Source: Pseudomonas sp. B21-040
Lineage (GTDB): Bacteria > Pseudomonadota > Gammaproteobacteria > Pseudomonadales > Pseudomonadaceae
Length of the DNA stretch: 64,000 bases
Assembly (NCBI RefSeq): GCF_024748695.1
Contig: NZ_CP087176.1
Location: 985,501 to 1,049,500, forward strand
Reading direction: 5' to 3'
Shown here piece after piece: positions 14,890-20,062 of the stretch. Position 1 is the first letter of the stretch; each line of letters begins with the position of its first letter. Below the pieces are notes generated by a model that saw nothing but the letters and a program-made list of their open reading frames with translations, searched no databases and was not told the origin of the DNA. The position numbers and the translations under genes are program-made.

Positions 14890-15261
14890 TCAGCGGCTCG
14901 CCGCCAGGGTAATCGACACTGATTCGGCGAATCGCAGTGCATGAGGCTTGTCGACTTCAACCTCGGCGTACAGCACCGATTCGTTGGTCATTACCAGGTC
15001 CAGCAGTTCCTGGGTGAGCCGTTCGAGCAAGGCGAAACGATTGCCCTCCACGTGGGCAATGATCGCCTTGGTGATGGTGCGGTAGTTCAGCGCGTGATCG
15101 ATATCGTTGTCGCGCACCGCTTCCTGGGCCGCATACAGGATGGTCAGGTTGATCAACACATCCTGCTTGTTGAGGATTTCATCCTCGTTGATTCCGATGT
15201 AGGTCCGCAGGCACAGGTCCTTGACCCGGATGCGCGCCATACCTGGTTGAAGTTGTGGCAT
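14890..15261 (-). CDS. folX: Dihydroneopterin triphosphate 2'-epimerase
   Basis: A 123-residue enzyme of the dihydroneopterin aldolase fold that epimerises 7,8-dihydroneopterin triphosphate to the monapterin form. The first domain block is [18 protein letters not shown]; the catalytic/binding residues lie in [27 protein letters not shown] and in [14 protein letters not shown]. Its start ATG overlaps the folE stop as TAATG (shared base 15261), so the two are translationally coupled. With folM it would make tetrahydromonapterin, the pterin cofactor of phenylalanine hydroxylase in Pseudomonas. Confidence 0.93.
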
Positions 15262-15845: not shown

Positions 15846-16556
15846 TTATTTGATGTGCCGTCCGCCGTTGACGGTCAGGGTGGTGCCGGTGACATACGGG
15901 TTGTCGAGCAAGTAGCGCAGGCTCTGGTAGATCACTTCGCTGCCGGGCTCAATGCCCAGGACGGATTTGGCCAGCGCCTTGGCGCGATAGGCCGCGTCGT
16001 CCTCGGGATTGAACATTAGCAGGGCGGGGGCGATACCGTTGACCTTGATTGTCGGCGCATATTTCGCGGCGAAGGACAGGGTAAGGCTGTCGAGCCCGGC
16101 TTTGCTGGCGCAGTAACCGATGTGCTGGCTACTGCCCTTGCGGGTCACGTCATCGCTGATGTGCACAATGTCTGCCGGAGTTGAGCGTTGCAGCAAGTCG
16201 GCACAGTGCAGGTTGATCAGGTAGGGCGCAAGCATGTGCACGCTGAACATGCGGCTGAAGGCTTCGGCCTCGGTGTCCGGCGTTTCGGCCAGCCATTCGG
16301 AAGCATTGTGGACAATCGCCCGCAGGCTGTCGGTATGGGTTTTCAGGTCGCTGATGAACGCGAGGATCCCGGCTTCAGTGGAGAAGTCGGCAAACACCGC
16401 GATGGCGCCCAGATCACGCAATGCCTGGACACCGGGGCGCTCGCTGCGGTAGCTGAAGATCACCCGATGGCCGTCTTCAATCAAACGCTGCGCACAATGC
16501 AGGCCGACACGCTGGCCGGCACCGGTGATGAGGATTGGGGCTGCGGAAGGGGTCAT
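15846..16556 (-). CDS. folM: Dihydromonapterin reductase
   Basis: A 236-residue short-chain dehydrogenase. It has a modified nucleotide-binding motif ITGAGQRVGLHCAQRL, NAS in VHNASEWLA, and catalytic Tyr/Lys in YCASKAGLDSL; the C-terminus is TVNGGRHIK. FolM-type enzymes reduce dihydromonapterin to tetrahydromonapterin with NADPH. The ATG at 16556 is chosen; the frame is open a little further but the upstream residues are not family-like. On the minus strand a TATAGT hexamer lies in the upstream gap and may be the -10 of the folM-folE-folX operon. Confidence 0.93.
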   Translation of the reverse strand: MTPSAAPILITGAGQRVGLHCAQRLIEDGHRVIFSYRSERPGVQALRDLGAIAVFADFSTEAGILAFISDLKTHTDSLRAIVHNASEWLAETPDTEAEAFSRMFSVHMLAPYLINLHCADLLQRSTPADIVHISDDVTRKGSSQHIGYCASKAGLDSLTLSFAAKYAPTIKVNGIAPALLMFNPEDDAAYRAKALAKSVLGIEPGSEVIYQSLRYLLDNPYVTGTTLTVNGGRHIK

Positions 16557-16628
16557 GAACGGCTCGCGTCGCGGTAAGAGCAAAACTATACCAGCGACGG
16601 GAGGCATGCACCTATTGTGGTAGTGAGC

Positions 16629-17198
16629 TTAGCGGTTTTGCGTGGACGGCCGGGCGGGCAACGGCCGTGTCGGCGTGGTGTTCAGCCAGTTGGCCAACAG
16701 GCGGGTCGACAAGGGAATGAAGAAGTAGACCATCAACGGCGTCAGGCACAACGTACTGATGAAAACCCGCGGCAGCAGGCTCAGTTCGCTCAACAAAGGC
16801 CCCAGTACAAAGTTGAACAACAAGGACACCGGAAAGAATGCCAACCAGATCGCCACTGCCTGTTTCCAGCGTGGTGGGCGCTGTCCGACTGCGCCGAACC
16901 AGCCTTCAATGCCGCTGACCCGATGCTCGGTTGGATGGGCGAACAAATCGCTGCCACGGCCTAGCCATGCAGTACGCGAGGCGGAATGCTCCCAGGTGTG
17001 CAGGGTCTGCTCATCGGCAAAGCGGAAGATAATCTGGAACTCGTCATCACCGGCTGGCGGAGCGAGCACGCCAGAGCCGAGATAACCGGGAAAATCGGTG
17101 GCCAGTTGTTCGCCTTCGCGCAGCCAGGCAATCAGGTCTTGATAACGGCCATCGGCGACGCGACGCGCCACCATCAGCGTGACGGGGGAGGTAGACAT
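16629..17198 (-). CDS. Antibiotic-biosynthesis-monooxygenase-domain membrane protein
   Basis: A 189-residue protein. Residues about 5-95 form a ferredoxin-like ABM domain (VTLMVARRVADGRYQDLIAWLREGE ... FQIIFRFADEQTLHTWEHS). The rest holds two hydrophobic membrane segments (about 115-140 and 147-170) with basic flanks. This ABM plus two-TM architecture recurs in proteobacteria; no substrate is established. The ATG at 17198 is preferred to the longer open frame. It is divergent from the MerR regulator gene, with 211 bases between them, so it is a possible regulatory target. Confidence 0.85.
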   Translation of the reverse strand: MSTSPVTLMVARRVADGRYQDLIAWLREGEQLATDFPGYLGSGVLAPPAGDDEFQIIFRFADEQTLHTWEHSASRTAWLGRGSDLFAHPTEHRVSGIEGWFGAVGQRPPRWKQAVAIWLAFFPVSLLFNFVLGPLLSELSLLPRVFISTLCLTPLMVYFFIPLSTRLLANWLNTTPTRPLPARPSTQNR

Positions 17199-17335
17199 TT
17201 TGTATCTCCGTAGGGCATTTGCGTTACACCGGATAGGCGTTTCGCCAGACGCAGCACCAGGGTGTCGGACTGCGTCTTGAGACAAGCAAGGATTATTCCT
17301 GAATCTGACCAATACACCAGAGACTTTCATGGTTT

Positions 17336-17373
17336 GCATGTGTTGAACATGCAGGGGGTAATGGAGTTAGAAT
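17336..17373 (+). promoter_or_regulatory. Likely MerR-type operator/promoter of the LitR-like gene
   Basis: GCATGT-GTTGA-ACATGC (17336-17352) is a perfect 6-bp inverted repeat with a 5-base centre. It overlaps a TTGAAC -35-like hexamer (17343-17348). A TAGAAT -10-like hexamer follows at 17368-17373 after a 19-base spacer, the long spacer typical of MerR-family promoters. The regulator's ATG lies 36 bases downstream, so autoregulation is the simplest reading. Assignment is by eye. Confidence 0.5.
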
Positions 17374-17409
17374 GGGATCCAATTTTGCGCACCGGACGTA
17401 CATCATCCA

Positions 17410-18369
17410 ATGCCTGTCCTGACTGACGCTCCTCCTGCCGCTGAGGCAGATCCTTCCATCAATCGCGAAGAGCTGTTTCCCATTCGTGAGGTGGCGCGGC
17501 TGACGGGCATAAATCCCGTCACGCTGCGGGCATGGGAACGACGTTATGGCCTGATTCAGCCCACCCGCACCGAAAGTGGGCATCGGCTGTACTCGATGGT
17601 CGATGTCGAGAAGGTTCGCAGCATCCTTGGCTGGATTGACCGCGGTGTCGCGGTCAGCAAGGTTGGCAAGATTCTGGCCAGGACCGAACCTCCCAAGGCA
17701 CTGGCGCAGTTCATTCCCAAGGAAGTCGTTCAGGCCGATTACGCCCATTGGCAGCAACAGGTCCAAGCGGCGGTGAGTTCCTTTGATGATGTTCAACTGG
17801 ATCAAGTCTACGGGCAGATTTTTTCCACCTACTCCCAGGCAGTCGTTTTTCAGGACATTCTGATGCCGCTCTGGAAGTTGTTGTTACAACGCCAGGATCA
17901 ATTCGGTTGCACCAGCGAATGGCTGTTTTTTGATGGGTTTCTGCGAGTTCGCGTATTGCAACGTTTGCTGCTGATGCGTAACGCGCAACCCCGGCGGGTG
18001 ATCGTCAGTGCATTGGCAGGTCAGTGCCGAGAACTAGAGTTGTTGGTGGCCGCTCTGTTCGTGAGCAGTAATGAAATGGGGGTTCGGCTGCTGACGATTG
18101 GTCAGCCATTCGATGAGTTGCCGCTGGTATGCCAGCAGCTAAAACCGCAAGCGCTGGTGCTTTTTTCCAATCACGTGCCTTCAACTGATCTGCCACGACG
18201 GCTCAATCGTCTGGCGATGAGCCTGGATTGCCAGTTGTTTCTTGCCGGGGATACGTCGGAACTGGCTCAGGAAAGCCTGGCCGGTTCGTCGATTGGCTGT
18301 CTGGGCAATGAAGGCGCGGTGATGCGCCAGCGTCTGAAACAGTTCCTGGCGGGCAACCTCGATACCTGA
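17410..18369 (+). CDS. MerR-family regulator, class II LitR/CarH-like (no cobalamin ligand)
   Basis: A 319-residue transcription factor. The MerR winged helix is at about 24-90 (FPIREVARLTGINPVTLRAWERRYGL, then TESGHRLYSMVDVEKV). The rest resembles the two-part cobalamin-binding region of CarH/LitR: a helical bundle (about 120-195) and a Rossmann-like domain beginning RRVIVSALAGQCRELELL. In B12-dependent LitR/CarH the latter block reads E-x-H and its His binds cobalt; here the His is absent (GQCRELELL) and no W-x9-EH motif is seen in the bundle. That matches the class II LitR proteins that act with short LOV photoreceptors in P. putida. It ends 3 bp from the convergent PilZ-like gene. Confidence 0.85.
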   Translation: MPVLTDAPPAAEADPSINREELFPIREVARLTGINPVTLRAWERRYGLIQPTRTESGHRLYSMVDVEKVRSILGWIDRGVAVSKVGKILARTEPPKALAQFIPKEVVQADYAHWQQQVQAAVSSFDDVQLDQVYGQIFSTYSQAVVFQDILMPLWKLLLQRQDQFGCTSEWLFFDGFLRVRVLQRLLLMRNAQPRRVIVSALAGQCRELELLVAALFVSSNEMGVRLLTIGQPFDELPLVCQQLKPQALVLFSNHVPSTDLPRRLNRLAMSLDCQLFLAGDTSELAQESLAGSSIGCLGNEGAVMRQRLKQFLAGNLDT

Positions 18370-18372
18370 GGT

Positions 18373-18978
18373 TCAGACATGCAACGCAGGGTGTGTCAGG
18401 CGATGCTGCTGAAGGATGAACTGGCGCAGGCGCTCGGTTTCATCTTTGTCGGACTGGCCCAGTTCATAGGCATAGAAACCGTGCTCGGTTTCACGCTCAA
18501 ACGTGCCGCGCAACGCAATCCGTTCATAGCCTGAGGGGCTGAACCACAAGGCGAAGTGCTTGGGTGGTTTGGTCTTGTTGCGAACTTCCAGCAAAACCCC
18601 TTTGCAAGAGACTTCGTGCACATACATCGTGCCGGGCTGGCCTTTGGCATTCTCCAGCGCCACCGGCTCATCGAGCACCAGGCGCCAGGGTCGGACCATC
18701 GGCCCGTCTTCGTAAATGCTCGGCACACCCAAGCGCAAATGCAGCGCATGAAACTCGTCTTCCACCAGATGCAGCGGAAAGGTCATTTGCTGATTTTCAA
18801 AATTGGCCTGGATGGTGACTTGCTCATGAGCCGCGAGGCGCGTGAGCAAATCACGGATCTGCGATCCACCATTAACGAGCAAGCTCGACGTCGCATCCCG
18901 CACATTGAGTTGCGGGTTGTGTTGCATGGTCTGGATGAAGTCCAGTTCATCCTGGGTCAGGAGTGCGTCACGTTGCAT
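18373..18978 (-). CDS. PilZ-like (YcgR-type architecture) protein
   Basis: A 201-residue cytoplasmic protein. The first ~100 residues resemble the YcgR N-terminal beta domain (IRDLLTRLAAHEQVTIQANFENQQ). The second half looks like a PilZ barrel, but the c-di-GMP motifs are degenerate: RPWRL stands where RxxxR is expected, and EVSCKGVLLEV replaces D/NxSxxG. Binding to c-di-GMP is therefore doubtful. It lies 54 bp downstream of the LOV gene on the same strand, so a light receptor and a PilZ-like output may be on one transcript. Confidence 0.7.
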   Translation of the reverse strand: MQRDALLTQDELDFIQTMQHNPQLNVRDATSSLLVNGGSQIRDLLTRLAAHEQVTIQANFENQQMTFPLHLVEDEFHALHLRLGVPSIYEDGPMVRPWRLVLDEPVALENAKGQPGTMYVHEVSCKGVLLEVRNKTKPPKHFALWFSPSGYERIALRGTFERETEHGFYAYELGQSDKDETERLRQFILQQHRLTHPALHV

Positions 18979-19032
18979 GGCTTGCTCGAAAGTAGTAGTT
19001 ACAAAGTCATTGGTGATTGTAGTTAATGACCA

Positions 19033-19509
19033 CTAATTCGAAGTTTTGTTTGCACCGTTCGTCGCTTTCAGCGCAGCAAGTTCGGCGAGTGCCTCGGCCA
19101 GCTGTGTTTCCAGCTGTGCAACACGCTGCTGCGCTTTGACTTGAATCGTGACGTCTTTTTGCACCCCGACAAAATAAACCTGCCCATTGCCCGGATCTTT
19201 CACCGTCGAAAGCGACAGTTCGTTCCAGAAGGGCGTGCCGTCCTTGCGGTAGTTCCTGAGGATTTCCCGGCAGGAGCCTTTCGTGCTCAGCGCCTCGCGA
19301 ATGGTTGGAAGCGCTTGCTGATCCCGATCGCCTGACTGCAGGAAACGGCAATCCTGGTAGAGGATCTCTTCGCTGGTGTACCCCGTCAGGTGTTCGAACG
19401 CCGGGTTGACGTAAATCAGGATGTTGTCCTGGTCGCCTTCCTTTTCTGCAATCACGATGCCGTCGTTGGAAGCGTTGATTGCCATTTGCAGCAGTTGAGC
19501 ATTGATCAT
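19033..19509 (-). CDS. Short LOV blue-light photoreceptor
   Basis: A 158-residue single-domain LOV protein. The FMN-binding core (about 5-120) carries ILYQDCRFLQ, the NCRFLQ-type motif whose Cys54 forms the light-induced flavin adduct. It continues with ILRNYRKDGTPFWNELS and VYFVGVQKDVT, the other two flavin-contact blocks. Residues 121-150 form a C-terminal amphipathic, coiled-coil-prone helix for dimerisation. No effector domain is fused. Length and sequence closely recall the P. putida short LOV proteins (PpSB1/PpSB2-LOV). The ATG at 19509 with AGGATT upstream is chosen over a longer frame. It is divergent from the flavodoxin gene and upstream of the PilZ-like gene. Confidence 0.93.
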   Translation of the reverse strand: MINAQLLQMAINASNDGIVIAEKEGDQDNILIYVNPAFEHLTGYTSEEILYQDCRFLQSGDRDQQALPTIREALSTKGSCREILRNYRKDGTPFWNELSLSTVKDPGNGQVYFVGVQKDVTIQVKAQQRVAQLETQLAEALAELAALKATNGANKTSN

Positions 19510-19609
19510 CGGAGAATCCTTTCCGGTTTGATTGAGCCTGCATTCTAAAAGAACAATACAGTTCGTGCTGTTAATATCCGGTCTTTCACTCAGTTTCAGG
19601 ATCAGATTG

Positions 19610-20062
19610 ATGAAAGTCGCCATCCTTTCCGGCTCGGTGTACGGCACGGCTGAAGAAGTCGCCCGTCACGCCGCAAGTATTTTGAAGGCCGCCGGTTTCG
19701 AAACCCTGCACAACCCCCGTGCGTCACTGGCCGATGTCCTGGCTTTCGAACCGCAAGCGTTTCTGGCGGTGACATCGACCACCGGCATGGGTGAATTGCC
19801 GGACAACCTGCAACCGTTGTATTCGATGATTCGCGATCAATTGCCCGCAGCATGGCGCGGTCTGCCGGGAGCAGTCATCGCCCTGGGCGATGCGAGCTAT
19901 GGCGATACTTTCTGTGGCGGCGGCGAACAAATGCGCGAACTGTTCGGTGAACTGGGGCTGCGCGAAGTGCTGCCGATGCTGCGTCTGGACGCCAGCGAAA
20001 CGGTGACCCCGGAAACCGACGCCGAGCCGTGGCTGGCGGAATTGGTCAGCGTTTTGCGCTGA
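19610..20062 (+). CDS. Flavodoxin
   Basis: A 150-residue FMN electron carrier of the MioC/flavodoxin-like group. The phosphate loop is LSGSVYGTAEEVARHAA (6-22); TSTTGMGELPDN and GDASYGDTFCGGG are the two flavin-stacking loops. The ATG at 19610 gives the standard N-terminus. The 100-base region upstream is shared divergently with the LOV photoreceptor gene. The electron partner is unknown; light-linked expression is a guess from position. Confidence 0.92.
   Translation: MKVAILSGSVYGTAEEVARHAASILKAAGFETLHNPRASLADVLAFEPQAFLAVTSTTGMGELPDNLQPLYSMIRDQLPAAWRGLPGAVIALGDASYGDTFCGGGEQMRELFGELGLREVLPMLRLDASETVTPETDAEPWLAELVSVLR

What the first reader, a model, noticed from the sequence alone, without database searches (positions are those of the whole stretch)
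17199..20062. Compact blue-light module: LitR-like regulator, PilZ-like protein, short LOV photoreceptor, flavodoxin
Seen: a single-domain LOV protein (photoactive Cys54 in QDCRFLQ), a MerR regulator of LitR/CarH build, a PilZ-like protein and a flavodoxin in 2.9 kb. Established: in P. putida short LOV proteins act with class II LitR regulators to control light-induced genes. Inference: this cluster is the light-sensing locus of the strain, with the PilZ-like protein and flavodoxin as outputs not described in that system as far as I know.
Basis: partly seen in the sequence, partly recalled or inferred. Interest (0 to 1): 0.8.

Follow-up and report, generated by a model that had tools for sequence, protein, structure and literature searches.

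The report
Known Pseudomonas blue-light sensor and repressor
This stretch of a Pseudomonas genome carries a blue-light sensor gene and the repressor gene it most likely controls, a pair already described in a related bacterium, while the two other genes named with it look like long-standing neighbours rather than parts of the light switch.

Summary
The four genes are real and correctly placed: class II LitR-type MerR regulator, divergent PilZ-family protein, short LOV protein (Cys54) and flavodoxin. The cluster is the published pmlR2-PME15565-pmSB-LOV locus of Pseudomonas mendocina, said there to be conserved in Pseudomonas; there illuminated LOV binds the regulator and relieves repression (PMC9758184). 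A census of 249 Pseudomonas genomes shows who belongs together. LOV and LitR are kept, lost or moved largely as a pair: both at the locus in 204 of 247; in 6 of 6 genomes with LOV elsewhere it lies beside a second LitR, without PilZ or flavodoxin. Flavodoxin is at 247 of 247 loci and the PilZ-like gene at 35 of 35 loci lacking LOV; 6 genomes keep LOV-LitR without PilZ. So the sensor pair is right; 'PilZ and flavodoxin as outputs' is not supported. The clear LitR operators of this genome lie at a distant rudS-litR1-phrB locus; the folM operator next door is decayed. Left open: LitR1 and its operators persist in genomes without any short LOV.

The parts
17410..18369 (+). LitR2: class II LitR-type MerR regulator, 319 aa, CarH-like build; Arg207 in the column of the CarH His of GERHE
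   Evidence: Pfam MerR_1; CarH alignment; model matches CarH 5c8e, Foldseek E 5.5e-12
19033..19509 (-). short LOV protein, 158 aa, photoactive Cys54, Leu67
   Evidence: PAS_9 E 1.2e-20; PDB relatives; Cys54 in 212 of 212
18373..18978 (-). PilZL: divergent PilZ-family protein, 201 aa, 54 nt after LOV on the same strand; judged a neighbour, not an output
   Evidence: orthologues pass PF07238; model matches YcgR, MrkH; kept in 35 of 35 LOV-less loci; spacing
19610..20062 (+). flavodoxin (PRK05723), 150 aa; constant neighbour
   Evidence: present at 247 of 247 loci with or without LOV
16587..16610 (-). decayed LitR operator upstream of folM: TGCATG-N12-GGTATA (relatives TGTACA-N12-GGTATA)
   Evidence: motif of the P. 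mendocina folM site as given in PMC9758184
16629..17201 (-). ABM-domain protein with a C-terminal stretch outside the Pfam match; neighbour
   Evidence: PF03992 E 4.4e-05, residues 6-79 of 190
15846..16562 (-). folM, dihydromonapterin reductase (weakly light-induced in P. mendocina)
   Evidence: NCBIfam PRK06483, 359 bits against 249; Table 1 of PMC9758184
15261..15824 (-). folE, GTP cyclohydrolase I
   Evidence: PF01227 E 1.1e-75
14890..15258 (-). folX/folB-type dihydroneopterin gene
   Evidence: PF02152 E 1.1e-24

Best explanation
The locus is this strain's copy of the PmlR2-PmSB-LOV blue-light switch. In the dark LitR2, a CarH-shaped MerR protein without the usual B12 ligand residue, sits on T(G/A)TACA-N12-TGTA(C/T)A-type operators and represses light genes. 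Blue light makes the Cys54-flavin adduct in LOV; lit LOV binds the DNA-binding part of LitR2 and takes it off DNA. In this genome the likely targets lie elsewhere on the chromosome: the rudS-litR1-phrB cluster and an FAD oxidoreductase gene beside it; control of folM next door is probably weak. Leu67 predicts the faster kind of dark recovery. PilZL and the flavodoxin are old neighbours, not outputs. Shown here: the genes, the joint inheritance of LOV and LitR, the operators, the lost ligand residue. Inferred from P. mendocina: light-dependent binding and anti-repression.
For: Same gene set and order as published. LOV and LitR2 both present or both absent at 237 of 247 loci (204 + 33); 10 absent clades identical on a tree; relocated together in 6 of 6 genomes, beside exact operators; 27 of 31 LOV-less genomes have only the LitR1 type. 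Three operators with at most 1 mismatch in the 16 kb around litR1 against 0.02 expected and a TTGACT-N16-TATGAT promoter at rudS as given for P6650. CarH build with Arg207.
Against: 10 of 247 loci break the pair: 8 LOV only (6 have LitR2 elsewhere, 2 have only LitR1) and 2 LitR2 only. The exact operator occurs once in the genome, and so does the reversed control, so the case rests on its place and on local enrichment. Which of LitR1 and LitR2 acts on those sites is not shown. Pfam does not find the B12-binding_2 domain in LitR2 that the paper reports for PmlR2. No light experiment was possible.
Confidence: 0.85

Rival explanations
1. PilZL is a third, light-tuned component: co-transcribed with LOV, it links light to c-di-GMP or modulates the regulator.
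For: Adjacent to LOV at 206 of 212 loci with LOV, same strand with a 54-nt gap here; a conserved PilZ-family fold.
Against: Present at 35 of 35 loci without LOV; 6 genomes keep LOV-LitR2 without it; absent beside the relocated pair (6 of 6); canonical c-di-GMP motif in 1 of 241.
Confidence: 0.07
2. LitR2 senses light itself through cobalamin, like class I LitR/CarH, and LOV is accessory.
For: The model covers the whole CarH fold; 32 of 206 orthologues have His in the ligand column.
Against: Arg207 here; no B12 domain found by Pfam in LitR2; PMC9758184 states that B12 is not needed for PplR-dependent induction in P. putida and that lit LOV inhibits PmlR2.
Confidence: 0.03
3. The switch is a relic in this strain, not working or without targets.
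For: The folM operator is decayed.
Against: All LOV key residues kept, intact frames, three good operators at the litR1 locus.
Confidence: 0.05

Closest known systems
PmlR2 / PmSB-LOV of Pseudomonas mendocina NBRC 14162 (PMC9758184)
   Same: MerR regulator of class II LitR type, short LOV, a gene between them (PME15565), folM-folE-folX and a further gene beside them; LitR operators at a litR1-phrB locus elsewhere.
   Different: folM operator intact there (TGTACA-N12-GGTATA), decayed here; the paper does not name PilZ or flavodoxin. PME15565 was not compared by sequence here; its equivalence to PilZL rests on position.
PplR1-3 / PpSB1-LOV, PpSB2-LOV of P. putida KT2440 (known here only through PMC9758184; Sumi 2020 not held)
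   Same: Class II LitR and short LOV acting on phrB and fol genes, as described in PMC9758184. LOV alignment with 3sw1 (PpSB1-LOV).
   Different: Three LitR and two LOV there; here two LitR and one LOV. Leu67 here where PpSB1-LOV has Arg66.
CarH / class I LitR (5c8d, 5c8e)
   Same: MerR DNA-binding domain, helical bundle and Rossmann-like domain.
   Different: Arg207 in place of the His of GERHE; the partner is LOV.
YcgR / MrkH PilZ proteins (for PilZL)
   Different: RxxR instead of RxxxR, mostly E in place of D/N in DxSxxG.

Membership tests
short LOV protein | single LOV/PAS domain without effector domain, photoactive Cys | tested here: met
   only PAS-type hits, 158 aa; Cys54 in YQDCRFLQ, 212 of 212
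short LOV protein | flavin binding and photocycle | not testable with these tools
   needs protein
class II LitR | MerR DNA-binding domain plus CarH-like C-terminal part | tested here: met
class II LitR | B12-binding_2 (four-helix) domain retained | tested here: inconclusive
   no Pfam PF02607 hit at E <= 10, but the model has four helices at 104-188 and matches the CarH cobalamin-binding domain
class I LitR / CarH | cobalamin-ligating His (ligand role recalled) | tested here: not met
   Arg207 in that column
PmlR2-PmSB-LOV system | LOV and LitR genes adjacent with one gene between, beside fol genes | tested here: met
PmlR2-PmSB-LOV system | LitR operators at light genes | tested here: met
   three sites at rudS/FAD oxidoreductase by litR1; decayed at folM
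PmlR2-PmSB-LOV system | light-dependent LOV-LitR complex and anti-repression | not testable with these tools
   shown in P. mendocina
PilZ domain family (PF07238) | profile score over the curated cut-off | tested here: inconclusive
   not for this sequence; yes for 3 of 8 orthologues scanned
PilZ domain family (PF07238) | PilZ fold | tested here: met
c-di-GMP-binding PilZ | RxxxR with D/NxSxxG (motif recalled) | tested here: not met
   1 of 241 orthologues; R96 and R99 (RxxR) in 241 of 241
   both at 35 of 35 loci without LOV; absent beside the relocated pair

The most novel reading that the evidence does not exclude
Class II LitR has an input that needs no LOV. Of 31 Pseudomonas genomes without any short LOV (E <= 1e-30), 27 keep a LitR1-type regulator and no LitR2. 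In the 14 whose locus was read it lies with rudS and phrB in 14 of 14, with an operator of at most 1 mismatch in 13 of 14. LitR1 there either senses light itself, uses another photoreceptor, or answers another signal.
Probability: 0.4. Interest if true: 0.55.

Novelty: already known. Interest (0 to 1): 0.3.

Why it matters
It places the strain's light switch in a published system and separates, by a genus-wide census, the true partners (LOV and its LitR) from constant neighbours (PilZ-family protein, flavodoxin). It also shows a gap: Pseudomonas without LOV keep the LitR1 regulon, so the LOV-LitR model may not be the whole story of light control in the genus. PilZL is a PilZ-family protein found in 241 of 249 Pseudomonas genomes with an altered ligand motif; no function for it was met here.

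Tried and rejected
Rejected: PilZ-like protein and flavodoxin as outputs. Rejected: LitR2 as a cobalamin sensor.

Tried with little use. Genome-wide operator search with up to 2 mismatches: 327 matches per strand against 263 for the reversed control, and its capped list did not show the known litR1 sites, so only and the local one search are used. Scan of the window with up to 3 mismatches: 42 matches, 22.3 expected, 0 of 100 shuffles reach 42; the window as a whole thus has an excess that I do not explain; the one match near LitR2 (17397-17420, 3 mismatches) is weak. Gap between ABM and LitR2: 10 of 176 relatives have a site with at most 2 mismatches against 5 of 528 simple shuffles, so some relatives may autoregulate LitR2 (several of the 10 are near-identical relatives); this strain is not among them. 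Upstream of folM, 16 of 32 loci without LOV have a site with at most 2 mismatches, but 6 of these (L090, L100, L102, L110, L112, L261) hold a match about 156-159 bases upstream that looks like ABM coding sequence and 1 (L187) still has LitR2; 9 clear ones remain (L049, L050, L053, L078, L080, L081, L083, L086, L131). Profile search of PilZL against PDB sequences: none at E <= 10. Papers with the words Pseudomonas, short LOV and PilZ together: 0 held. PA3435/PA3436 as the P. aeruginosa counterparts: recalled only; three papers listed, none read. The genome-contig scan kept 80 of 437 relatives, all near ones; 78 have LOV and LitR2, 2 have LitR2 without a LOV match at E <= 1e-10 (not followed). 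The tree was midpoint-rooted and its branch support was not examined.

Full report
What is there. The window is part of a 6.75-Mb single-contig genome. The 80 nearest named relatives of its PilZ-like gene are all Pseudomonas, among them P. brassicacearum, P. arsenicoxydans, P. mandelii and P. frederiksbergensis. On the minus strand lie folX, folE, folM and an ABM-domain protein, then LitR2 (17410-18369 +), PilZL (18373-18978 -), LOV (19033-19509 -) and flavodoxin (19610-20062 +). PilZL ends 3 nt from LitR2, tail to tail, and starts 54 nt after LOV on the same strand; LOV and flavodoxin diverge across 100 nt.

LOV. It is a short LOV; Cys54, N86 and N96 are invariant in 212 of 212 orthologues at the locus, and its nearest solved relatives are 7yx0, 7r5n, 5luv and 3sw1. 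Where PpSB1-LOV has Arg66 it has Leu67, as 172 of 212 do (Arg in 37, Val 2, Ile 1). The exchange R66I in PpSB1-LOV shortens dark recovery from 2471 to 23 min (PMC6047819, passages only), so a faster recovery is predicted here (inference).

LitR2. Sequence and predicted structure (mean pLDDT 81; Foldseek E 5.5e-12 to CarH 5c8e) show the CarH build. In the alignment with CarH the His of its GERHE stretch is Arg207 here; Arg in 167 and His in 32 of 206 orthologues. That this His is the cobalt ligand is recalled. Pfam finds no B12 domain in LitR2 but does in the paralogue LitR1.

Known system. PMC9758184 (outline and abstract, parts 1-3 of 8, the Discussion, and passages) describes in P. mendocina pmlR2, PME15565 and pmSB-LOV beside PME15555, folM, folE and folX, and states that the cluster pmlR2, PME15565, pmSB-LOV is conserved in Pseudomonas. 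Lit PmSB-LOV binds the N-terminal part of PmlR2 and inhibits its DNA binding. phrB and ufaM rise 25- to 33-fold in light and folM 2.4- to 2.5-fold, while pmlR2 (1.4-1.5) and LOV (0.9-1.1) hardly change. Its main text does not contain PilZ or flavodoxin. Sumi 2020 on P. putida is not held and is known to me only as those papers cite it.

Census. The same 249 Pseudomonas genomes, this one included, were searched for LOV (218 of 249 at E <= 1e-30) and PilZL (241 of 249, one match each). The locus was read in 247; the other two, G093 and G123, lack PilZL, LOV and LitR matches. Of 247 loci: LOV and LitR2 both 204, LOV only 8, LitR2 only 2, neither 33; PilZL 241; flavodoxin 247. Six genomes lack PilZL and keep LOV and LitR2. 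On a tree of flavodoxin, PilZL and ABM sequences, presence of LOV at the locus changes 14 times and of LitR2 12 times, with 10 identical absent clades, against 3 changes for PilZL; the joint absence is not one event. Of the 37 genomes without LOV at the locus, 6 (G024, G025, G065, G102, G174, G200) have LOV elsewhere; in 6 of 6 it lies directly beside a second LitR (37-42% identity to LitR2), with 1 or 2 exact operators in each locus and no PilZL or flavodoxin match in the 3.8 kb read. Of the 8 LOV-only loci, 6 genomes have a LitR2 (53-63%) elsewhere and 2 (G091, G142) have only a LitR1 type. Of the 31 genomes without any LOV, 27 have only a LitR1-type regulator, 2 have LitR2 (G186; and G222, which is 73% complete), 2 have none. 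LOV and its LitR form the unit; PilZL and flavodoxin do not follow it.

Targets. In this genome the published consensus TRTACA-N12-TGTAYA occurs exactly once, as does the reversed control; the place is 5595584, upstream of rudS-litR1-phrB, far from the LOV locus at 1.00 Mb. In the 16 kb around it there are 3 sites with at most 1 mismatch against 0.02 expected: one before an FAD oxidoreductase gene and two before rudS, where the promoter reads TTGACT-N16-TATGAT, as the paper gives for P6650. Pfam names 2-thiouracil desulfurase with DUF1722 (RudS), MerR with B12-binding_2 (LitR1), DNA photolyase and a short-chain dehydrogenase. A light operon of RudS, LitR and PhrB is in print (PMC11417400, passages only; that paper calls class II LitR B12-dependent, against PMC9758184). 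Upstream of folM, 53 of 182 relatives have a site with at most 2 mismatches, 4 of 546 shuffles (6 of the 53 look like ABM coding sequence); the usual form TGTACA-N12-GGTATA is the folM site of the paper. Here only TGCATG-N12-GGTATA is left, 16587-16610. Between LOV and flavodoxin 0 of 212, and between PilZL and LOV 1 of 206, have a site with at most 2 mismatches (shuffles 10 of 636 and 6 of 618); between ABM and LitR2 10 of 176 do (shuffles 5 of 528), which may mean autoregulation of LitR2 in some relatives but not here.

Verdict. Observation confirmed. The open point met on the way is LitR1 without LOV.

Noticed in passing
L366-L379 (LOV-less genomes): rudS-litR1-phrB clusters keep LitR operators (13 of 14 with at most 1 mismatch) in genomes without any short LOV; the sensor there is unknown.
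   Followed up: partly
L360-L365: In six genomes the LOV gene lies beside a second LitR gene away from the fol locus, with 1-2 exact LitR operators in each locus, suggesting that the pair controls its own or a neighbouring promoter.
   Followed up: partly
L051 (G186) and L187 (G222): LitR2 kept at the locus while LOV is missing between PilZL and flavodoxin (gaps of about 210-240 bases).
   Followed up: no
L046 4454-4477: A LitR-type site with 1 mismatch just before the FAD oxidoreductase gene next to rudS.
   Followed up: no
window 16629-17201: ABM-domain protein between folM and LitR2, 190 aa, with a long C-terminal part outside the Pfam match; found at most loci but not tied to LOV.
   Followed up: no
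window, whole: 42 matches to the LitR consensus with up to 3 mismatches against 22.3 expected, 0 of 100 shuffles as many; the excess is unexplained.
   Followed up: no
PMC11417400 against PMC9758184: The two papers disagree on whether class II LitR depends on adenosyl-B12.
   Followed up: no
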